Assembly: GCA_903813345.2 (NCBI GenBank) | Contig: CAIIXF020000008.1 | Location: 10,195,278-10,259,277, forward strand | Reading direction: 5' to 3' | Length of the DNA stretch: 64,000 nucleotides | Source: Owenia fusiformis | Lineage: Eukaryota; Annelida; Polychaeta; Sabellida; Oweniidae | Shown here: one piece after another, positions 1 through 30,500 of the stretch | Numbering within the stretch: the first letter of the stretch is position 1 | How the letters are laid out: every line of letters starts with the position of its first letter | Translations under genes and position numbers: made by a program | Notes under the pieces: generated by a model | What the model was told of the DNA's origin: nothing | Database searches by the model: none | What the model saw: the letters and a program-made list of their open reading frames with translations, nothing else

Positions 1-3000
1 GTGTATGCAATGCCTGACCCAACACAGACCATTGGAGAGCTGAAGTTCATGTCCACACTATCTGACCTGGCTGATAGAGAGCTGGTGGTCACTATTGGAT
101 GGGCAAAGCAAGTACCAGGTTAGTTTCAATTCATTAGAAGTTAATCTGCAATCTGTATACCTGGAAATTGAAAAGCATGGCCCAAAGTTTTGTAAAATTA
201 CTTCATCCTTCTTAATTATCTCATCGAACGAAGTTCGGAGGGATATAGGGAACGCCTCCGTCCGTCCGTCCGTCCGTCCGTCCATCCGTCCGTCTGTCCG
301 TCCGTCCATCCGTACGTACGTCCGTCCGGGCAATAACTCAAATACCGTTGGCCCGATTTTGTTCATATTTTGTACACATATACCCTATGGGGGTAGAAGT
401 TCTGCTCGAAAGCCGATTTTCAAAATGGCCGCTCATTTCAAAATGGCGGCCATTTTAGTGCCGAATTTACAGTAATGTAGGTGCAATATGTAAAACTGTA
501 ATAGCAATATGTTTTGGATGTAAAAAAATGATATAGGACATTAATAAAGCTAGAAATGTAGATATTAAAGAAGCACATGGCAGCCATCGTGAAAAATGGC
601 GGCCTTTACTCGTTATTTTACGATTTTTGCTGTAACTCGAAAAGTAGTGGAGCGATTTTGTTCATATTTGGTATGTGAATACTATAAACATTGCACACTG
701 TCTAAAGACACTTTTGGTAGAAAGTGGCCATTTTAAAAAATGGCCGCCATTTTGAAAAATGGCCGCCATTTTAACCTATTTTACTATAACTCGAAAAGTA
801 GTGAAGCGATTTTGTTCATATTTGGTATGTGAATACTATAGGGATGGCACACATTCTAATGACATTTTAACGTATTTAACTATAACTCGAAAAGTAGTGG
901 AGCGATTTTGTTCATATTTGGTATGTGAATACTAAAAGCATGACACAATATCTTATGACACTTTTAGTAGAAAGTGGCCATTTTGAAAAAAATTTTGAAA
1001 AATGGCCGCCATTTTAATGTATTTTATAATAATTCGAAAAGTAGTGAAGCGATTTTGTTCATATTTGGCATGTGAATACTGTAAGCATGGCACACTGTCT
1101 AATGACACTTTTGGTAGAAGGCGGCCATTTTGAAAAATGGCCGCCATTTTAACATATTTTACTATAACTCGAAAAGTAGTGGAGCGATTTTGTTCATATT
1201 TGGTTTGTGAATACTATAAGTATGGCAAATGGTCTAATGACACTTTTGGTAGAAGGCGGCCATTTTGAAAAATGCCTGCCATTTTTGCTATATACTTTGT
1301 TTGTAAAAATGCCTTCCATGGCTGTTCGATGGGATTCGCTACGCTTTGGCGTTGCCGTTGTTCTGGTTTGAAAATGAGTACTATTTTGAAATATGAGATC
1401 CAATTTTTGGTGAATCTTCAGGTCCCAATTTTGCAGAATGGCACCCCTTTCCCAGGTGTACTAATGTTACAAAGCTTTATACACACATTATCAACAATTT
1501 ATTCCAAATAAACAAATTAAATATTCATTTGGCTCAATATTTACTGGGCTACTGCTGTTATTCTCTTTGAATTGATTTTTAAATACAATATATCATTTTG
1601 ACGTGACATTTGGGATGCAATGTTCATTGTTTCAAGGGATTAGTATTCATTGCATCTGACACAAAATTATTAAGGGAGTTGAATGCAATTTGTAAGGTCA
1701 TTTTATATCATCTCACATTAATTAGCCCAATAAAGGATTCTAAATTGGTTCTGTCTACATGTATTCTTTGGGGTCCATGAACCATCACAGCATATTAAAA
1801 GTATTCTATTTGAGAGAGGCAGTCGTTCAAACTCTGTATCCATGATTTCAATGTTGTCATCCTAGTTACCAAGGTGACAACGAGATCAACTGCATGTAAT
1901 TTGTGCCAGTGATGCACATGAGCTGTGATAAATGTGCTTGTTTATTTGTTTAATGTTTGTTATGATTAGTTAGTGTATACATAATAACATTTTTGTTCAA
2001 GATTCTATATCAATATTCTAAACAAGTTTTCCGGTGATGTACATGTATGCTCCCATAACCCACTGAGCTCTTCGGTCAGTGTCCTGGTTTAAAATATTAT
2101 TTAAAATATTATCTACATTCTGCAAAAGACTCAATGCCAGTAGAAACAAGTGTTGTCGCGATTAATCGATACATCGCGATATACATCGCCAAAGCTGATT
2201 ATTGCGATGCATCGATGTCTGAAACAAAACATCGATGTTTTAAAAAAAGATAATTTGCTAAAAATTACCCTTTCACATCTTATTTTGACGCAAATCGCTT
2301 ACCTTTCTCACGTCTTATTTCATTTTCCAATATTTTCTGATATTCTTTCGCTTTAAAACTGTTTTAGCTAGTCGAAGTGAACCATTAATCAAAAAATTAC
2401 TTTACTTTTATTTCACCGTTACTTGAAGTTCCCGGATGTACCGGATGTTCGGTATTTTAGTGCATTAGTGTTCGGTATTTCAGTGCACTTTTCTCGGACT
2501 TTTTCTCGATGTTCATTGCGATGTGCATCAATGTTTACTACTGAAAATTGCTGATGCATCGATGTACGATTATGGCACATCGCGACAACACTAGTAGAAA
2601 CAATATTGAAGTCTGGGTCAAGGGCATCTTTGTAGGTCATGGGCATCACTCAAGTGTCAAGGTCATAATTTTAGATCAGATTTATTTCTCAAAGCCATGT
2701 TAAAGTCATAGATTCAGGCCAAGTTAGAACCAATTATCAGAACATTTGGAGAAACATTATCTCATATTGCAAAAGAACGGTAATCAAAGAACCCTAAATT
2801 GAACTGTGCAAATAAACAAATTACAGAAAATGCAAGGTTTGAGTGTTGAAATCTGCAAGCTATCAGTAGTCTTGAGTTGAAAAAGTAGACATACTTCTCT
2901 TTATAAACAGTTTTATCAGATCTCTAAACCATTTACTGGATGGGTTTATGGAGTCCAGGGTTGCAAGGTCTTCTATCAAATATACTTCAAGATTAACAAT

Positions 3001-6000
3001 TGTAGCTAATGGTGGAGATATAACTAAGTACTAGCATATGAACTAATTCAAGGTCTTCAGTCATGTAGGTGCAGAACGTATATAAATTGCTTACATGCAT
3101 TTAATTCCCTTCAAAAAGTAATAGCAGGTCTTGCAGCGAATACATAATCTGGCAACTAAGAAAGCAGATCCTTGAAAGTTGAATAAATAGTGTCTTATAG
3201 TCAATTAATTGTTGTGAAATATATGTGACAAAATACATTTTATGCTCAATTGTGGACTAAGGTGACTTATTTCAAAAATAAAAAGTTATTGACTTTTTTA
3301 TGACATTCTGTCTTAAGATATTTACACTAGCTTTGCTAATGAGGTGTTTAGAGACATAAAAGGAAAGTAGAGGAAAGGCAGTTGACAATTTAGAGTACAC
3401 TCACATTAATTGATTTATCTTTTATTGACTTTAATCAAGGCATGCAGGTCTTTGGCATATGGATCACTTTATGCATTTAAAATACAGGGAGGGTTACATG
3501 GACATGACATCATATCTTAAATTACAGTATAGGAATAAGTATATTTGGGTAGGGAGTCATTTACATTAAAAATATGAATGTATTGTGGTCACATATACAG
3601 TATTTGTTAAAGGCACTACAACTTACTTTATTTGCTCCAAGTGAATCACAGTTAACATATAAGACTACGATTTTGATAAGTTGGAATAGTAGAAATAAGG
3701 CTCTGCTTTGAAAGTGATAGTGAGAAGTATTATTTTGCCCATGTCACTTGTGTGACCTTGAAATAGATCTAGAAAATAGCACTTCTTTGGAAGCAGAAGT
3801 CACATTTCAAATGATGTCATGTCCATATGATTTGTTGATCTTATCATGATGTCATGTCCCTTAAATGCCAAACATATAAGAAGCGGAAGAAAAACATTGT
3901 GGCAGAGAACTGCAATTACAATATGTGAAAATCAATGTGTTAAATAGTAACCTTGTTTGCCCTTCACAATGGCTAAAAATTGCCTGCTATCTTGTTGTTT
4001 GATGCTTTGTGTCAGTCTTTCAAATCGACATCAACATTTCCATAGATATGGTATCTTCTTGATTAACTGTCCCGATAGGAGAACTAAATGTCTGAAAGGA
4101 ATATGTGCACTCTCCACTTATTGAACGGCATGAGAAAACAAACTGTTAAACCATAATGCAGGTGGGTGATAATATGCACACCCACCATGATATGCCTGTA
4201 GTGTAACATAATTTATGCATGAATGAAGTGTACAAATTGTGAAAGGCAAATGTTATCAATCAGTTTGTTTATATCTGTTTTAGTATGGGAGAAGGCTATT
4301 AACAGAGTTTTATTTGTGATTAATGCAATGAATCGGATATACATGTAACAGAGAGTCAATACACATCCTTGATTTTATGATCTTTGAACCTCAAGCTTGT
4401 TTGTCATACCCAGGTTCGCAAAACGCAATCAATATTTAAATAGCATGTAATTGTTATCTATAGGTGTTTGTTGTAAAAATAAAACTACAAGTCATAAATA
4501 ATCCAAATAAAAAGGTGTGCTCAAGTGCAATGGCAGTTCCCCTATTTCAGAAAATAGAAAATACTTGATTGTGACCCAGATAAGATGTCCATGATATATT
4601 CCTGGCTTAAAAATTGACATTGTGCAAGCAAAAAATCCTGAAAATACAACAAATGGGGTGTACGAAAATAATCCATATTAATCCTTGGTTCACTGTTTAC
4701 TTAACATAGAACATAGTTCTTAACATCTGATTGATCAATTGTAACAAAGATTGCTTGAGGTTATCGCTCCTGTACATGTGCATAGCACACAATGTTATTG
4801 CTCTATGACATCATCACTTAATGTTCATCAATCAATTAATTACCCCTATCAATTCAATTTTGCTCGAGAATAATTAATGGACATGCACTGTGTGAATGCT
4901 GTGATTCAGTCCAATCAGATATTGGGAATTGGGGTCTTATATTACACACATATACACACTGGTTATTATCTACATATATTAGGGGAGGGATTTGGAAATG
5001 GGTTAGCCTGGTAGGGTCTTATTTACCCAGTTGTTAGTACATAATGCACATACTTGTATACCTATTCGTTCCAGGATTTGGAAATGGGTTAGCCTGGTAG
5101 GGTCTTATTTACCCAGTTGTTAGTACATATGTACATACATGTATACCTATTCGTTCCAGGATTTGGAAATGGGTTAGCCTGGTAGGGTCTTATTTACCCA
5201 GTTGTTAGTACATATGTACATACATGTATACCTATTCGTTCCAGGGTTTGCTAACTTGTCCCTGAGTGATCAGATGAACCTACTGCAAGCCGCATGGTGC
5301 GATACCCTCATGCTTAACCTTGCCTACCGATCCACACCCTACAAGGGATATCTCGTTTTTGCCGATGATTTCCAAATTTCCGAGGAGGACGCTGAGAAAT
5401 ATGTGTGTCCTCAAGATTTAGATAAAGTCAACAGAAAAATGGCAAAGAAGATGACGAGTCTTGGAATAACAAAAGATGAATATGTTTTACTCAAAGCTAT
5501 GGTACTGTTTAATGAAGGTGAGGATTATGTGTCATGTTTTACTCAAAACTATGGTACTGTTTAATGAAGATGAAGATTATGTGTCATGTTTTACTCAAAA
5601 CTATGGTCCTGTTTAATGAAGGCGGGGATTATTTGTCATGTTTTACTCAAAACTATGGTACTGTTTAATGAAGGTGAAGATTATGTTTTACTCAAAACTA
5701 TGGTACTGTTCATTGAAGTTGAGGATTATGTGTCATGTTTTACTCAAATCTATGGTCCTGTTTAATGAAGGCGGGGATTATTTGTCATGTTTTACTCAAA
5801 ACTATGGTACTGTTTAATGGAGGTGAGGATTATATGTCATATTTACTCAAAACTATGGTACCATTTAAAGAAAGTATGGATGAATGTGTCATTTTAACTC
5901 AAAGCCATAGTACTAGGTACTTTTTAATCATATTGGGCAAAAATGGGAACAACAGTGATACAATTGCAAAGTACAGTACAAAAAGCAGCAAGGATGATAT

Positions 6001-6550
6001 TTCTGTTAATGACCCCTGTTGGTTCTGTTGCATAACTGTGTCTATTGAGGTCATATACATATTTGGGTGCCCATATTTGTTGTTCATGTCTATGCTTAAA
6101 ATTTGATGTTAGAGTAAGACTCATTTTAAACAATTGGTTTTTCTATCACATTTCCTTTCCCAAAAAGGTTCACATTGATGTGACCCATCTTGTCATTGGC
6201 AGATTATTTCTCGTCAGCTATGGACTGGGCACTAATATTTATCAGAACATTTATATTATATCCCGATAAGCTAACAATAAATCATACATTGTGTTTGTGT
6301 CATTTCAGATGCTAATGTCGACAACGCTCCAGCAGTGAAGCAAGTACAGGATAAATATCATGATGCGCTCATTGAGTATGTGCAGCGCAGGAGCGGTGGC
6401 AGCGTACGCCGTGTTGGAAATCTTTTGATGCTTTTACCTTTAATGACCCAGGCTAAAATCCTTGCCAAACAATACTGGTTCAACATTAAACAGGAAGGCA
6501 AAGTCCCAATGCATAAACTGTTCCTAGAAATGTTAGAGGCGAATTCATAA
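1..6550 (+). CDS. ERR: Estrogen-related receptor (NR3B), ligand-binding domain, 3' part of gene
   Basis: This is an orphan nuclear receptor that in other animals binds TCAAGGTCA as monomer or dimer and controls energy metabolism. The visible exons are 1-118 (5' end outside the window), 5245-5517 and 6309-6550. Together they give 210 residues and a TAA stop. Each junction splits a codon after its first base and restores the frame. Diagnostic stretches are YAMPDPTQ and [15 protein letters not shown] in the first exon, the receptor signature [17 protein letters not shown] in the second (helices 3-5), and [18 protein letters not shown] in the last, which contains the AF-2 helix 12. These match the ERR family more closely than other receptors. 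The DNA-binding domain is not in the window. The second exon is bordered by tandem copies of its own acceptor and donor regions, described separately. Identity is secure; assignment to one vertebrate paralogue (alpha, beta or gamma) is not meaningful. Confidence 0.95.
240..1290. repeat. (GTCC)n microsatellite and tandem array with ATGGCGGC motifs
   Basis: Positions 255-328 are an imperfect GTCC/CGTC tetranucleotide run. After it comes a divergent leader (about 340-470) and then five tandem copies of a unit recognised by GCGATTTTGTTCATATTTGG, with anchors at 652, 806, 902, 1049 and 1184. Spacing varies from 96 to 154 bp. Most units end in one or two AAAATGGCCGCCATTTT-like blocks, which carry the ATGGCGGC core of a YY1 site on one or both strands. 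The array lies in an ERR intron just downstream of the first visible exon. No open frame suggests a protein. Confidence 0.85.
1291..4988. other. ERR intron, mostly unremarkable
   Basis: AT-rich intron sequence between the first and second visible ERR exons. It holds one hAT-type MITE (2148-2593). A perfect ERR response element, TCAAGGTCA, lies at 2657-2665, with looser GGTCA half-sites around 2620-2640. No exon of a second gene was recognised. Short open frames here are AT-rich noise or fall inside the MITE. Confidence 0.6.
2148..2593. mobile_element. hAT-type MITE, 446 bp, 8-bp target duplication
   Basis: The ends are inverted repeats AGTGTTGTCGCGAT and ATCGCGACAACACT (14 of 14 bases). It is flanked by the direct repeat GTAGAAAC at 2140-2147 and 2594-2601, an 8-bp duplication typical of hAT transposition; matching bases beyond it make the exact boundary uncertain by one or two bases. 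Subterminal regions are rich in CATCGATG/CGATG motifs, the kind of repeated binding site used by hAT transposases. There is no transposase frame, so the copy is non-autonomous. Confidence 0.85.
4989..5244 (+). repeat. 85-bp tandem repeat carrying the ERR exon acceptor
   Basis: Three copies with starts at 4989, 5075 and 5160. Each begins GATTTGGAAATGGGTTAGCC and ends CCTATTCGTTCCAG. The third copy ends exactly at the 3' splice site of the ERR exon at 5245. The first two therefore carry two extra, nearly identical acceptors (CGTTCCAG followed by G). Copies are almost identical, so the array is young. Confidence 0.9.
5491..5912 (+). repeat. 52-bp tandem repeat made from the ERR exon end and its donor
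   Basis: The anchor TCAAA(A/G)CTATGGT recurs at 5491, 5543, 5595, 5647, 5692, 5744, 5796, 5847 and (diverged) 5899. The period is 52 bp apart from one 45-bp step. The first unit is the true 3' end of the exon plus donor (GAAG then GTGAGG at 5518). Downstream copies duplicate the last ~27 coding bases plus ~25 intron bases. At the equivalent splice position, two copies keep GT, two have GC, and the rest have lost the site. Confidence 0.9.
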
Positions 6551-19500: not shown

Positions 19501-22500
19501 TAAAGGAACAAAAAGGAAGAATAGTCAAGTTGATGATTCCACAAAGCCAAAGAAAGTCAAACCAAATGATAAGGCTATTAATGACAAATTGAAATCCGAC
19601 AAAAAAGCAGACAAAGGGACAAAATCTCTGAAGGTAAAAGTAGTAAACTGCAAAAAGGAAAAGCTACAGAAAGAGCGTTCAATGTCTCCCAAAAAGGACA
19701 AGGCCAAGAAAGAATGTTCATTGTCTCCTAAAAAAGACAAGGCCCAGAAAGATGGTTCACTGTCTCCTAAAAAGGACAAGGCCCAGAAAGATGGTTCACT
19801 GTCTCCTAAAAAGGACAAGGCCCAGAAAGAGCATCCAAAGCCTCCTAAAAAGGGAAAGGTACAGAAAGGAGAAAGATCTACTGTCTCCCTAAAGAAGGAA
19901 AAATCTCCTGTAAAGACATTTACTAAACTCAAACAGAAAAGTGTTGCAGGGACTAGTCCTTGTAAAGTGAAGGTTCCCAAGATGGATCTGAGTAAACTTG
20001 GGGCTGCTGGAACTTTGAAACTTAAGGCAGTTAAAGTACCTGGAAAAAAGGTAAAAAAAATAGGAAAAGATGTGAAGATCAAAGTTGCAAAAAACATGAC
20101 GAAAGGCAGGTCTGAAACTGACCTTAAGAAGACAAGTGCCAAAAACAAGGTTGTGATTCCTGAGAAGAAAAATGAGAAAAACATCAAATCAAATGAGCCT
20201 AAGTCTAAAACTAAGATTGCTAAAAAGACACCTGATAAAACTACCAAAGATGTCACCAAAAAGGTCAAAGGAGCTCCAAAAGACCAAAAGATGCAAGTTA
20301 AAGAATCAAATAAAAAGTCACCAGTGAAAAACAAAACTGCCAAAATCCCAGTTACAAAGGTCAACAAAGGTGCTATCACAAAAGCTAAAAAGATAATCAA
20401 AAATGTGAAAAAGAAAAAGGCAACTACTGAAGCAATGGCAGCAATGACTTTCCCAAGGAAAAGAAGAGAAGCCAGTTTGAATGCTGCAGCTAAAGTGAAT
20501 CTTCTATTAGATTACTCATCTCCTGATAAACTTTCTCCTCAGGCATCTCAGCCACAACCTTCCAACAAGAAACAGGACTCTCCAAAGCAAAAAGTGAAGA
20601 AAGAACCTGTAGAGAAAGATAAGAAGCCAGCTGTTAAACAAGAGGTAAAAGAAGCTAGGCTGGTAGCCAAGGTAAAAAAGGAAATCAATGATAAACCAAA
20701 GAAAGCTGAAAAAGTAGTTAAGACTGAAAAGCAGAAATCTCTTGAATCTAACAAGAAAAGGGCAATAAAGGGTAAAGGCAATGGTAGCAAAGAAGGTACA
20801 GCAGTCACTAGACCTATTAAAATGAAAGGAAGAAAGGGACGCAGAGGTGGTATTGATCTTGTTTCTTCACCCATACTGGCTAGTAAATCACGACGCATGG
20901 CTAGCCTGAATGCAAGCGTCTTTATGGAGATGACTCAAACATCATCATCTGAGTTGTCATCATCTGAATACAGTTGGTCATCCTGTATGGCTACTGAAGA
21001 TGAATTTGATATGGATCTCAAAAAAGCCATGGAAGCTAGTCTCAAAGCGCACATAGAATCTAAGGATCCAATTAAACTCAAAGAGAAATCCACTAGTAAA
21101 GCACAAAAAGACAAATCAAATGAAATTCAGAAATCGCTCCAAAGAGAGAAATCAAAAACAAAATCACTTAAAGATAAGCCCATCGAAAGTGATCAAGTTC
21201 AGTCAGCTCAGAAAGAGAAACTTAAATCCTCAAATAAGGTTAAATTGAGCCTCCCTCCTAAGAAACGGCCAGAAAATAGCAATAGTCCTCAGTTTGCTCC
21301 AATCAGGAGAATGGCCAGTCTTAATGCCCAGGCATGTATAGCAGCTACAAATAAAAGCTGGACCAAAGGACAAGATTGCGAAGAAGAGGCATCTGATACA
21401 GAGACAGAAAAAAGTATTGCAGTTGAGGTTAAACCAGAAGAAAAGACACCAGAAAAAGAAAAATCAGAAGAACCAATTAAGTCAGACGATGCCACGAAGA
21501 AATCAGAATCGAAAGCTGACCTTCCAGTGTCCCAGGATGAGACTGCGCCCAGTTATAGAATTATAGAACGTGGACCCAGTGTTTATGACTTTGAGAATGC
21601 AAGAGCTCCTGAAGGAGGCGCAACCTTTGATGAGGTTAAACCTGATGTAATTGAGATTCAGCCTAGCACAAACAGTACCAGGGTTGCACTAGGTATGCCC
21701 CCTAGACCCCTCAGTGCCAAAGAGCGAGCCATCGAGAAGGCTCAACTGGCTGAACAGACTAAACAAAGCGTTAGCTGCTGGGTTAGTGGACTTAATGAGC
21801 CACCGCCAGCTGGACTTGTATCTTGGAATAATACAGGGGTCTATGGGGAGAATAGGTATAATGTGCCAGTGAATAGACAGCATCAAGGGCCAGATACTAA
21901 ACCCCCACAGAACAGTAGTACAAGTGGTATGCAATCCCCAAGCGGACAACCCCATGTATACCCCAATCAGCAATATCAATCTAACATGTCTGGAGATACT
22001 CCAAGGCATGTGTTGATGAACACACCTGCCCTTGCCCCACAGGCCTTTCAAGCACAACCGAGGGGTATGCCTCCCGCACAAAGATTGCCCCCCTCTCGGC
22101 AACCACAACAACAGATCTCTACTCACCAAGCCCAGCCACAGATAAGATCCCCTGGACCGCCCCCTGTTCAAAGGAGACTCTCTTCGCCCCTCGCCAACCC
22201 AGTCATTCCACAGGATAACACCTCCATGCCACCACCCACTATGATGTCTCCTCTCCCTTCCCAGGGGAGTCAAATTGGTCAACCCCAAGGGAGTCAACCA
22301 ACTCAGCCTCCTGTACCCCAACCCCAGCAAAATCAGCAGGGTCCCCCACAAGTCATGGGGAACAACCCACCTACGCAAATGATGACAAACAATCTCCAGG
22401 GACAGGCACCTAATCCGCAAATTGTTCACATGGTGAATAACGCACGGGTGCCATCCCCCCTCCCACAGGTGCATACTTACCCTTACAGCAATACTTCTAT

Positions 22501-25500: not shown

Positions 25501-27466
25501 AAAAATCAAAACCTTCTGAAAACAAACCAGTTACTCCAGAGAAAAACAAATCACCTCCAATGAAACCTAAAACAAGGTCCCCTGTGAGAAGTGAACCCAA
25601 AACTCCAGACAGTAAAAAGAGTATTGAAACTCCAGAAAAAAGTCGATCGCCTCAAACTAGAAGCGGAGCTAAGACACCCGAGAAAAGCAGGACACCAGAT
25701 GCGAAAGAGAAAAAATCTGAAAAAATTGAGGGAAAAAAATCTGGGTCTGATAAGAAGAGAAAAGACAGTACAAATAAAGAGAAGAATGAACTGAAAGTTG
25801 TTGATGATAAGGGAAAGAAGAAAAGAAAGTCCCCAAGTCAGAGTATTTGGCGATGGGAGGGGGAACCTTTCTACAAAAAGGTCTATACAACAGTAAGCAA
25901 GTTTCATAATTTTATCACCTTAAATTTGAATATACATGTATGGAGTATTGTCTGCCCAAAGATAGATCTTATAGATGATCCCCCTTCCTCAGTAATTAAG
26001 AGACATAGTATTGGTGGTGACATATTGTTAAAGCCTCCAACTTTTTTGTGTACAATGTTTTTCGGTCAGCATCTGTAACAAATGGTAGGTGGTGAGATTT
26101 TGCGTGTTAATGCCTTGTATGATCCCTGTTGAATATTTTTTCCTTTTAGATAATCAAATAATTGTGATTGCTTTTACACCAAATCAATCAGTAAGTTCCA
26201 AGACAGACTTGAATTTGTTCATGGTGTTATCTCTAGTCCTGTGAAAATGTGAAATCAAAATAGACTCTATTTAAAGTCTTACTTGGAATTATAAAGCAAC
26301 CAACATTATTGAAAGAGTGAGTGATGGAATTCGCCACAGTTTCAATTGTTTTCGACTATGTTATAGAATGATTACCCTCCTCTGGAACGCAAGTGCTATC
26401 CATCTATTCGCCATATTGATGGTGATATCATCAGAGTGCGGGATTGTGTGCTGATTAAGTCTGGGCCCCTGAAGACAGATGTACCTTTTGTTGCCAAGAT
26501 ATCTGCCCTTTTTGAGAATCCTGATGATGGTAAGATTTAGATGAATACATTTGCATAATAAATATTATTTTGATTTAATATATAGCTTGACGTGTAATTT
26601 GAATTCCATTTGTTTGAATTTTATGTACCATATGTCATGTATTTCAAATTTAATGTGTCGTGTATTTCAAATCTATCCATGTATGTCTTGATTATGAATT
26701 TAATATGCTGTATGTCATATCATGCATACTGAATTTGAATATGATGTGTGTTCTTTTATAGGAGAGATGATGATGGGTACGATGTGGTACTACAGGCCTG
26801 AACAAACTGAAATTGGGAGACGTCCATATCACATTGACCAAGAAATCTTTGCCTCCAAACATAGAGACACCAACAGTGTGGCCTGTATAGAGGACAAATG
26901 CTATGTGCTAACGCTAGGAGAGTTCTGCAGGTGAGTAGGTAGATCAGGAGCTAGCTTGTGTTGGTCTATCTGGATCCTGCTTAATCTTTCAGTGTACATG
27001 GATATAATATTATATTGTAACAGGAAATTAATTTTTTCCTTTATTTTGACAAAACTTGTTTCATATGTGACCCTTTTATGATATTCTAAAACTAATTATA
27101 GACCATTTATATTAAACTTTAAAACATAAATCATTTCGAATTAAAAATGTATTGTGTGTGTAATTCCATTTTAAATATTCAATTAAACTATATTTCAGGT
27201 ACAAGGCTAAAATTAAGATGAAATCTGAGGGTTTTCCCTCACAATTAGACAAAAAATGTATTGTCCCGTCACAGAGTGGCCTCACAGAGACACCTATTGG
27301 GCTAAATAGAATGCCTTCGGAGACAACAGATCAGGAAATAGTGTTCATGTGCAGACAGGTTTATGATTTCCGATTAAATCGAGTTTTGAAGAATCCAGTT
27401 GTTAGATCTCTATCATTCCAAGCTATACATAGTCAGGCCACTGGAGGTGCTAATACTATGTTGTAA
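13523..27466 (+). CDS. BAHD1: BAHD1-type BAH-domain heterochromatin protein
   Basis: Exons: 13523-13600, 19208-22646, 23578-23681, 24303-25892, 26367-26529, 26762-26930 and 27199-27466, giving 1936 residues. All junctions have GT/AG and compatible phases. Residues ~1750-1900 form a BAH domain with [52 protein letters not shown] and [18 protein letters not shown]. These match vertebrate BAHD1, whose BAH domain reads H3K27me3 and recruits HDAC-containing silencing complexes. The remainder looks disordered: Lys/Ser-rich (27-720), then Pro/Gln-rich (~900-1150), then Ser/Thr-Pro rich (~1590-1675). Three R-R/M-ASLNA motifs lie near residues 447, 588 and 726 and look like conserved short motifs. The protein is more than twice the length of human BAHD1. 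Exon 1 is short ([20 protein letters not shown] and six more residues) and is supported by a strong donor. The C-terminus extends about 20 residues past the usual end, into a tandem repeat. Confidence 0.92.
14316..14677. mobile_element. MITE with CAGGGTTCTCACTAGG ends, 362 bp
   Basis: Left end CAGGGTTCTCACTAGG; right end, read inverted, CAATGTTCTCACCAGG (13 of 16 match). The 5-bp direct repeat TGATG flanks it at 14311-14315 and 14678-14682. The ends and short duplication suit the hAT5-like groups. Internal AGTCTAA/TTAGACT motifs recur. It sits in BAHD1 intron 1 and is non-coding. Confidence 0.7.
15339..18035. mobile_element. 2.7-kb foldback DNA transposon, non-autonomous
   Basis: Long inverted arms pair 15339-~15960 with ~17400-18035, best near the ends. 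Termini are CACAGGCTGGTATCG, flanked by AATAC at 15334-15338 and 18036-18040. A direct TTGTCCGCTGTGACGGAGC motif occurs twice in each arm (15356 and 15725 on the left; complements near 17633 and 17998 on the right). The inner part has many CCGCAGGTGA / TATGCCATATTCCGC units (16030-16260 and 17110-17200), including a perfect hairpin CATACTCACCTGCGG at 16082-16124. A 60-bp hairpin nests at 16934-16995. No long open frame exists. Because the sequence lies entirely in BAHD1 intron 1, it would form a large RNA hairpin in the pre-mRNA. The superfamily is uncertain: the 5-bp duplication and CAC terminus recall Transib/RAG-like or hAT5 elements. Confidence 0.8.
18293..18503. mobile_element. Inverted-repeat MITE, 211 bp
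   Basis: The arms begin CAATCAAAAGACAACACTG and, inverted on the right, CAATCAAAATACCACACTA. Both continue through ATCATAT and GAAAAATACATTCACA, giving about 55 paired bases. No clear target duplication is seen. It lies in BAHD1 intron 1, between the foldback element and exon 2. Confidence 0.65.
18807..19011. mobile_element. MITE with CAGTGATCTCCCCAG ends, 205 bp
   Basis: The inverted ends are CAGTGATCTCCCCAGCATT and, on the right strand, CACTGATCTCCCCAGGATT (17 of 19 match). Perfect GACAT flanks lie at 18802-18806 and 19012-19016. CACCCACCTGA-like motifs occur four times inside. It ends about 200 bp upstream of the acceptor of BAHD1 exon 2. Confidence 0.75.
19681..19860 (+). repeat. 39-bp coding repeat in BAHD1 (13-residue unit)
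   Basis: About four in-frame copies of a 39-bp unit encode the 13-residue repeat [13 protein letters not shown], at residues ~185-240 of the predicted protein. The two middle copies are identical at the DNA level, indicating recent expansion. The unit is a basic S/T-P-K-K type motif, as seen in DNA- or chromatin-binding disordered tails. Confidence 0.85.
22687..23170 (+). repeat. GGTGACATATTG family, copy A (BAHD1 intron 2)
   Basis: The 5' end reads GGTGACATATTGTTATGGTC and the 3' end reads AGGTGGTGACATGTTGTCAT then TCAATGCCTTGT. The inside carries GGCGGTTGGC-type repeats, AACTTGCTTCAAATTGACCA and a partly duplicated internal segment. It starts 40 bp after the BAHD1 exon 2 donor. Related copies are B, C, D and E. 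Confidence 0.8.
23325..23532. mobile_element. hAT-type MITE with TAGAGGTGTCA end, 208 bp
   Basis: Left end TAGAGGTGTCATGGGTCAGG; right end inverted TAAAGGTGTGAAACCGACC. Flanks are GTAACAAT (23317-23324) and GTAACATT (23533-23540), an 8-bp duplication with one change. GGTCAGG/CCTGACC motifs fill the subterminal regions. It lies in BAHD1 intron 2, and shares its terminal bases with the element at 33823. Confidence 0.8.
26011..26119 (+). repeat. GGTGACATATTG family, copy B, short form
   Basis: A 109-bp copy with the family 5' end (TTGGTGGTGACATATTGTTA) joined to the family 3' end (AGGTGGTGAGATTTTG, TTAATGCCTTGT). It lacks the GGTCA-rich middle. It lies in the BAHD1 intron after exon 4. Confidence 0.75.
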
Positions 27467-27558
27467 CCCGACATAGTCAGGCCACTGGAGGTGCTAATGC
27501 TATGTTGTAACCCGACATAGTCAGGCCACTGGAGGTGCTAATGCTATGTTGTAATTCA
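27427..27558 (+). repeat. 44-bp tandem repeat spanning the BAHD1 stop codon
   Basis: Three copies (starts 27427, 27471 and 27515) of a unit beginning ACATAGTCAGGCCACTGGAG and ending in TTGTAA. The first copy encodes the last residues of the protein ([12 protein letters not shown]) and its TAA. The later copies lie in the 3' UTR. As 44 is not a multiple of three, duplication did not lengthen the protein. Confidence 0.85.
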
Positions 27559-30500
27559 ACATAGTCATGCCTTTTGCACCTTGGCTATTTGCATAGATGC
27601 AATGGTTGACCTATATACTATAAAGGAGGGAGGTGGATCGAGGAATTGTACACTATAGCTTATCTAAGACCATAAAGCATTGGGAGTTATAGAGAAATTG
27701 TACGATATAGCCTGTCTAACTACATGTATTATATACATGTAGGAATGGAGCAACAAGACAATATGGCCTATTATGTGATAACAAGGTAGGGGCCTGAATG
27801 CAGCAACTGCTTGTTTGGCGCATGTGACTAAAGCAAGAGTCTAACTGCACAATATCACATTAATGTGAGTAAGATCAAAAGATGGATATGAAATCCACAT
27901 TTAACTTATATCTCTGAAATGAGCAATGTACCTAACATGTTGAACCATTTCAGGAATTGTAATTTTTCATTACTGTAAAATGTGTGAATATGAACATTGG
28001 GTCATGATATATATACAAAAAGGTATTTGAATAGGCCCTCCACAACTCCTTATGTTGTTCAAACGAGATGTTTCAGCACATCTTTAGCATGTATATTATG
28101 CTTAAAAGTCATCAAGTATTTCAACTTTTTTAGTAGGTGCATAGTACATACATGTACATGTACAATGTACATGTTGGTGCCAATATCATGGCCATTATTT
28201 ACATGAAGCTGATATATGAAATTATATTCATGTAATGATAAGGTAGAATTTTAGTACTATTTTTACGATGAATTAAAAGTGATACCAGATTAGGTAATCA
28301 ATTTAACATAATGTCACATAGATAGTATTTTTATCGAAATCATGATTTAAGATCACAGAGTAATTGTGTAAAGATTTGCAGTATTAATTAATATAAATTT
28401 CGCTTAATAAATCTCCCATTTACCTAATGTTGATTATAAGTATTTTATATCGGTAAAACTGCATGAAAAATATTTGTAAATAATATCTAGTACAACATAC
28501 AAATGCAAAATTTATTTGTTATGTAAGAATGACTTGGCATATATTTTGGAGACGCTACCTAGGCATTTATTGTATAATTACCTACTTCCATCCGCCATCT
28601 TAAATCCCATAATCACACAAATATATGATTGAATTGTTTCCCAAAAATGGCCAATTCCAGAGAACTTTTTATAAAAAGTTTGGTCTTCGATTATAAAAGA
28701 AAATAAAAGATATTCAGAGTGGTGGATTTAAGAAAAAAGTCTCAATCATTCTTTGTATGTTCATATCATTATTATCTTCTTGCCATCAAAAAAAGAAATG
28801 CGTGAAGCTGCTTTAGATTCAATGAAATATAAACCAGTGATTTATTTATTAAGTGTATTCAGTGATTTGTATTCTTTATTATGTTATGAAATAACAAAGC
28901 TAGATTTTTGTACAGTGTCATATCTTCAAAACATTGTGATATAATTTGTAGGTAATCGACTAATCGTATATCAGTTTGTATAATAGACAAAATTTATGTT
29001 AATTTTGCATGCAGAGGAACAACACCCAAAGCACATACATGAATTTACATAAGGTATAGAATTAGTTTGGAAAGATATTACCAATATATTTTCCTCTCTA
29101 TTATGTCATCACCAAAAAGTGGTGACATATTGTTATGGTCTCCGTTTTTTTGTCGGTGGTTGGCGACTGGCGTCTGTAACAAATTCTTACAACTTCCAAT
29201 AACTCAACAAATACTGTTTAGACTGACTTCAGTTTTTCCAAAATCATCTACAAGTTATCAGAAGTTCAAATCTGACTTAAGATTTGAGATTTGACCTTCA
29301 ATGTCTCTCAAGGTCAAAAAAGGACTAAAGGTTTTTTTCAACTTGCTTCAAATGAACCAATCTTTTTCAAATTCATCTACAAGTTCTCAAACATTTGGCT
29401 ATAAATTTGATCTTCAATGGCATTCTCAAGGTCAAGAAAGATGTGACCTTCAATGACCTTCTCAAGGTCAAAAGGGTCTTTTTTCAACTTGCTTCAAATT
29501 GACCAATTTCTTTTTTCAAAATCATCTACAAGTTATCAGAAGTTCAAAACTGACTTAAGATTTGACCTTCAATGACATTCTCAAGGTCAAAAAAGGTCAA
29601 AAGGTATTTTTTCAACTTGCTTCAAATTAACCTTTTTTTATCAAAATCATCTGCAAGTTCTCAGAAGTTCACATCTGACTTAAGATTGAACTCATAATAT
29701 TGTGAGCAACTAGGTGGTGACATTTTGTCATATTAATGCCTTGTATTTAGATTGTATCAACCTGAAGTTTAATACTAAGTTGTGATGTAGGATATTCATA
29801 TTTGATGAAACTAGTGATTCACTAGACCACTTGAATCCAACCAACACATAGTAAAATGTCTACATGATTAAACTTCAACTGCAATGTGATTTTTATGACT
29901 TTAGTATTAAGGTACGCATGGTTGGTGACTCAGACCTGTTTGTGAGTTCATTAGTAGGGTTATTCATTCTACTTTGCCTACCTTATAAGTTTAAAATACA
30001 AACTTGTTGCTGAATTGAGTGTCTATTGTTTCTGCATTTGACCTGTCTTAAGTTGTCTGAGACACCAAAAATTTAACATGGACTACATCTTAGAGGATAA
30101 AACCTGTCTAAGACACCAAAATTCTTACATGGGCTATCTCTAAGAGGTTTTTAGTGTGAATTCTGAAGGAAACTTGAGAAAGGAATTTTGTTATCTAAAA
30201 TTCCTGGATGTATCAAGTATGTATGGTTATTTGAGAATTATTATGCATGTTTTGTTATGTAATATATTGTAATGTAAAAATTCTTATGTTAGACTTATTA
30301 CATGATATACATGTAGAGAGTAAAGGTTCACATTTGTTGTAAAAACGTTATTTTTATGACTCCCATCATATTAGGTATCAATTTTAAAAATTTCTTTAGA
30401 TTGCAATTTGTTAAATGTATGATTTCAAATGAATTGTTTGTTATAGAAGTATTCCACAGAGTATGGTAATAATGTTGAGTGTTGTACATGTAAAGGTGCT

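What the first reader, a model, noticed from the sequence alone, without database searches (positions are those of the whole stretch)
4989..5912. ERR exon bracketed by minisatellites built from its own splice sites
The upstream 85-bp unit ends in the acceptor CGTTCCAG and occurs three times; the third copy is the real splice site. The downstream 52-bp unit contains the last ~27 coding bases plus the donor and occurs about nine times. Two independent arrays, one at each edge of one ligand-binding-domain exon, are unlikely by chance. They create a set of competing splice sites. Use of any later donor would read into an in-frame TAA at 5562-5564 and give a receptor without helix 12, a possible dominant-negative form.
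Basis: partly seen in the sequence, partly recalled or inferred. Interest (0 to 1): 0.75.

Follow-up and report, generated by a model that had tools for sequence, protein, structure and literature searches.

The report
Splice-site minisatellites flanking an annelid exon
One exon of a worm's estrogen-related receptor gene sits between two stretches of repeated DNA that copy its own splice sites; this is an example of a known oddity ("mirages", so far reported in lancelets) that turns out to be common in this annelid genome, and it is probably tolerated rather than used.

Summary
The arrays are real. An 85-bp unit (4988-5250, 3.1 copies) repeats the acceptor, and a 52-bp unit (5482-5914, 8.5 copies) repeats the last 36 coding bases plus the donor, of an ERR ligand-binding-domain exon (5245-5517). 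The host is an oweniid-like annelid. In the held literature such "mirage" repeats are described only for amphioxus.

The exon is not special. Of 84 other exons sampled from this genome without regard to repeats, four show the same at five edges: Scr, PAK1-like (both edges), MEK1-like, CDKL5-like. Arrays cover exon edges slightly less than flanking DNA and never exon middles, as expected if selection only protects the frame.

Both decoy acceptors score like the true one; only three of seven downstream copies keep a GT donor. Every decoy product has an early stop 109-417 nt before the last junction. Decoy donors would remove helices 9-12, not just helix 12, and predict mRNA decay rather than a dominant-negative receptor.

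Most likely these are neutral minisatellites with the exon-proximal sites used: a new member of a known kind, whose novelty is its frequency in an annelid. No transcripts could be examined.

The parts
1..118 (+). 3' part of the preceding ERR LBD exon (begins upstream of the window), donor GTTAGT at 119
   Evidence: tblastn against ERRgamma and spliced frame
4988..5250 (+). 85-bp acceptor-side array, 3.1 copies, 97% matches
   Evidence: TRF
5049..5074 (+). decoy acceptor 1 (first exon base would be 5075), score equal to the true site, one mismatch in 26 intron bases
5134..5159 (+). decoy acceptor 2 (first exon base would be 5160), identical to the true site over 26 intron bases
5245..5517 (+). 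ERR ligand-binding-domain exon, 273 nt, symmetric phase 1-1
5482..5914 (+). 52-bp donor-side array, 8.5 copies including the exon copy, with 149-bp higher-order repeat
   Evidence: TRF and unit alignment
5562..5564 (+). in-frame TAA met if any downstream donor is used
5671..5679 (+). decoy donor AAG|GTGAAG, score 7.5 against 11.0 for the true site
5820..5828 (+). decoy donor GAG|GTGAGG, score 10.2
5871..5879 (+). weak decoy donor AAA|GTATGG, score 4.9
6309..6550 (+). last ERR exon, 80 residues including the activation helix [12 protein letters not shown] and the stop codon

Best explanation
These are two exon-edge minisatellites ('mirages'). Local tandem duplication, by replication slippage or unequal exchange, happened to include a splice site at each edge of one ERR exon. 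The copies next to the exon body remain the working acceptor and donor; the other copies are intronic decoys. They are tolerated because only the exon-proximal pair has to win, and transcripts that use a decoy carry an early stop and are probably degraded. The repeats are mostly neutral by-products of a genome in which such arrays are frequent. Shown: the arrays, the frame, the decoys, the stops, and the same anatomy at other exons. Inferred: the duplication mechanism, correct site choice in vivo, and decay of mis-spliced RNA.
For: Array anatomy. In every case the exon-proximal copy is the one colinear with homologous proteins: ERR, PAK1, MEK1, CDKL5, Scr. Four of 84 exons sampled without regard to repeats have the same arrays, at five edges. 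Array coverage (period 25 or more) is 4.4% in far flanks, 2.6% at exon edges and 0 in exon middles, the pattern expected if only frame disruption is selected against. Most edge-array periods (85, 52, 76, 86, 71) are not multiples of 3 (54 and 51 are), while the repeat inside a window coding exon is 39 bp. Units U2 and U5 differ by one base within a 149-bp higher-order repeat, typical of minisatellite turnover. All ERR decoys give early stops 109-417 nt before the last junction. In amphioxus, mirages are reported not to disturb regular splicing (PMC3087553, PMC3902484).
Against: No RNA data. The decoy acceptors equal the true one in score and one decoy donor is nearly as strong, so some mis-splicing is plausible. 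Correct acceptor choice requires the last of three equal sites, which first-come use would not give. Arrays at both edges of one exon occur twice among the few cases known here (ERR, PAK1-like), hinting at something more local than independent hits.
Confidence: 0.74

Rival explanations
1. The arrays act as a splicing rheostat: a regulated share of transcripts uses decoys (or skips the exon) and is degraded, tuning ERR level, with copy number setting the strength.
For: Decoy acceptors as strong as the true one, a decoy donor at 10.2 against 11.0; every decoy gives an early stop suited to decay; the exon is symmetric, so skipping stays in frame.
Against: Same arrays at unrelated genes suggest a genomic by-product; four of seven donor copies have lost GT; amphioxus mirages are reported not to disturb splicing.
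Confidence: 0.13
2. One reading: decoy donors make a receptor without helix 12 that acts as a dominant negative.
For: In-frame TAA after any later donor.
Against: The product loses helices 9-12 including the dimer helices, since all 80 residues of the last exon are gone; the stop lies 109-309 nt before the last junction, so decay is expected; most donor copies are poor sites.
Confidence: 0.04
3. Intermediate of intron or exon birth: copies of the boundary are raw material for a new exon or intron, as proposed for amphioxus globins.
For: Published model (PMC3087553); intact decoys at both edges.
Against: No unit carries both a good acceptor and a good donor around an open, in-frame segment at ERR. 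Compatible with the main account as a rare later fate.
Confidence: 0.05
4. Assembly artefact of a collapsed or expanded repeat.
For: Copy numbers in such arrays are hard to assemble; amphioxus assemblies differ in mirage copy number (PMC3902484).
Against: Copies carry distinct substitutions; the anatomy recurs at five genes on different contigs. Exact copy number may still be wrong.
Confidence: 0.04

Closest known systems
Mirages: minisatellite-like duplications of exon-intron boundaries in amphioxus (Adh3, globins BflGb6 and BflGb9, PGBD5, troponin C)
   Same: Tandem units of tens to ~160 bp spanning a boundary, at either exon edge, many copies carrying AG or GT, exon-proximal copy being the real site (PMC3087553, PMC3902484).
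   Different: Host is an annelid; both edges of one exon carry arrays (ERR and a PAK1-like gene); frequency estimated here at about 5% of sampled exons. Normal splicing and copy-number polymorphism, reported in amphioxus, are untested here.
Intron gain by tandem genomic duplication (AGGT model)
   Same: Duplication that copies splice-site sequence (PMC3443670).
   Different: Existing boundaries are multiplied; no new intron inside coding sequence is visible.
NAGNAG and other tandem alternative splice sites
   Same: Near-identical competing sites in tandem (own knowledge).
   Different: Spacing here is 52-356 nt and use leads to stop codons, not to 3-nt in-frame choices.

Membership tests
Mirage (exon-boundary minisatellite) | Tandem repeat whose unit spans an exon-intron boundary (coding plus intronic bases) | tested here: met
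   52-bp unit: 36 coding + 16 intron bases. The 85-bp unit contains the acceptor but at most ~6-7 exon bases, so it meets this only marginally.
Mirage (exon-boundary minisatellite) | Real boundary kept as the exon-proximal copy with intact coding frame | tested here: met
   Homology and spliced frame
Mirage (exon-boundary minisatellite) | Many, not all, extra copies keep AG/GT signals | tested here: met
   2/2 acceptors, 3/7 donors
Mirage (exon-boundary minisatellite) | Regular splicing undisturbed | not testable with these tools
   No transcript data held
Mirage (exon-boundary minisatellite) | Copy-number instability between haplotypes or in somatic cells | not testable with these tools
   Only one place matches this exon in the assembly
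Estrogen-related receptor (NR3B) | Ligand-binding domain closer to ERR than to ER or other receptors | tested here: met
   ERRgamma 143 bits, ERR1 133, ERR2 130, ER 68
Estrogen-related receptor (NR3B) | ERR-type DNA-binding domain and C-terminal extension | tested here: inconclusive
   Extension GVRLDRVRGGRQKYRR found upstream; zinc-finger exons lie outside the stretch fetched

The most novel reading that the evidence does not exclude
Splice-site minisatellites are a genome-wide feature of oweniid annelids, touching thousands of exons, and splicing there picks the exon-proximal site among near-identical copies by a rule (strict exon definition or exonic enhancers) robust to repeated duplication; variable copy number then acts as a genome-wide source of splicing variation and intron birth.
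Probability: 0.2. Interest if true: 0.7.

Novelty: new member of a known kind. Interest (0 to 1): 0.45.

Why it matters
Mirages were noted as a possible cephalochordate peculiarity. Finding them at about 5% of sampled exons in an annelid makes them a recurrent genome-level process. Each is a natural experiment in how splicing chooses among near-identical sites, and a testable source of new introns. For ERR itself the consequence is probably minor.

Tried and rejected
GFP and COX1 family searches found nothing and are uninformative. Dispersed or transposon origin of the units: no copies found elsewhere (a missing match there is not proof). RNA structure hiding decoys: no unusual folding (z -0.36 and 1.41). 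Selection removing decoy donors: 4 of 7 lack GT, nominal p 0.047, but U2 and U5 share their change through the 149-bp duplication, so not significant. A first product table used the wrong start of the last exon (6310) and was redone with 6309.

Full report
Observation. The exon between them, 5245-5517, joined to 6309-6550, encodes an ERR ligand-binding domain: ERRgamma 143 bits, ERR1 133, ERR2 130, against 68 for the estrogen receptor. The preceding LBD exon crosses the window start and ends at 118 with donor GTTAGT.

Details that change the picture. Scored with a generic metazoan matrix (textbook values, own knowledge), both upstream acceptors (first exon base 5075 and 5160) score the same as the true one, 9.4. 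Of the seven further donor-side copies only three have GT (last exon base 5673, score 7.5; 5822, 10.2; 5873, 4.9; true site 11.0); two have GC and two have neither. The 52-bp unit carries 36 coding bases. The exon copy differs from the others by 3-9 alignment columns, except for a diverged distal copy.

What decoy use would do. Either decoy acceptor gives a stop after ..[11 protein letters not shown], 332-417 nt before the last junction. Any GT decoy donor gives ..[18 protein letters not shown], 109-309 nt before the last junction. Skipping the 273-nt exon keeps the frame. By the usual 50-55 nt rule (established in other animals, inferred here) decoy products are targets of nonsense-mediated decay. 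The truncated protein would lack all 80 residues of the last exon; in the ERRgamma alignment that is the region of helices 9 to 12, including the dimer helices (helix names from general knowledge of nuclear receptors). A dominant-negative receptor lacking only helix 12 is therefore not what the sequence predicts.

Whose genome. The 498-Mb assembly has 12 large contigs. A homeobox search found an ordered Hox cluster on C1, including Lox5 with the KLTGP motif, Lox2/Lox4-like genes and Post2, and a separate Post1 on the same contig. The published Owenia fusiformis genome has 12 chromosome-scale scaffolds, 505.8 Mb, and 11 Hox genes clustered on chromosome 1 except Post1, which lies further along it (PMC9977687). 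The host is therefore an oweniid-like annelid, very probably O. fusiformis; the species is inferred.

Is the exon special? I sampled 84 other exons of the same genome by family (20 homeobox, 28 nuclear-receptor and 36 kinase matches) without regard to repeats, and ran TRF around them. Four carry arrays that contain the exon's own splice site: Scr (about 13 copies of a 76-bp unit at the acceptor), a PAK1-like gene (86-bp acceptor array with three decoys and 71-bp donor array with one, so both edges as in ERR), a MEK1-like gene (54-bp donor array) and a CDKL5-like gene (51-bp acceptor array). Identities were checked against solved structures; the coding sequence is colinear with homologs up to the exon-proximal copy. 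This is 4/84 exons (95% interval 1.3-11.7%) and 5/168 edges. Match ends served as stand-ins for exon ends, so the edge count is approximate. Array coverage (period at least 25) is 4.4% in far flanks, 2.6% at exon edges, and 0 of 6405 bases in exon middles. Arrays thus strike splice sites nearly as often as ordinary flanking DNA and are excluded only where they would break the coding frame.

Explanation. The simplest account is that this genome makes many minisatellites by slippage or unequal exchange, that some include a splice site, and that these survive because the exon-proximal copy keeps working. The nearly identical U2 and U5 copies and the 149-bp super-unit are the usual marks of such turnover. 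I found no sign of special RNA folding and no reliable sign that decoy donors are selected away. How splicing picks the exon-proximal acceptor among three equal sites is not shown; exon definition with exonic enhancers is the likely answer, by inference.

Comparison with what is known. Tandem duplications of exon-intron boundaries are known in amphioxus as mirages: Adh3, globins, PGBD5 and troponin C, with units of 10 to ~160 bp, at either edge, with copy-number differences between haplotypes, and reported not to disturb splicing (PMC3087553, PMC3902484). The original Adh3 paper is not held. Library searches for mirages and for Owenia with minisatellites found no report outside cephalochordates, though that library lacks most subscription papers. 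The ERR arrays meet the anatomical definition of a mirage; normal splicing and instability could not be tested.

Verdict. The locus is a new member of a known kind. The more interesting result is that this kind occurs, apparently at a few percent of exons, in an annelid.

Noticed in passing
L010:479-1497 (G000:C1, Scr gene): About 13 copies of a 76-bp unit repeating the acceptor of the Scr homeobox exon, most copies keeping an AG.
   Followed up: partly
L066:946-1274 and 1487-1627 (G000:C5:69145-69826): PAK1-like exon with splice-site arrays at both edges (86 bp and 71 bp), the same anatomy as ERR; the decoy donor scores the same as the true one.
   Followed up: yes
L074 (G000:C10:27469805-27470015, minus strand): MEK1-like exon with a 54-bp donor array; the first decoy donor is in frame without a stop and would insert 18 residues right after the ..GTRSYMS stretch.
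   Followed up: partly
L082 (G000:C2:27320577-27320821, minus strand): CDKL5-like exon with a 51-bp acceptor array; all four decoy acceptors keep AG.
   Followed up: partly
L020 and L018 (G000:C1:17970457-17970654 and 17970808-17970996): Two different Post2-type homeobox exons lie 351 bp apart on one strand: either two genes or alternative homeobox exons.
   Followed up: no
window 27427-27571: 44-bp array, 3.3 copies, whose unit contains the last codons and the TAA of an open frame just downstream of a BAH-domain exon (26704-26934): a repeat built on a possible stop-codon end.
   Followed up: partly
window 19652-19868: In-frame 39-bp coding repeat (13 residues, KKDKAQK..SLSP) inside a long lysine-rich open frame.
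   Followed up: no
window 5117-5245: Each 85-bp unit also holds a second acceptor-like site, TCTTATTTACCCAG, 43 nt before the main one.
   Followed up: no
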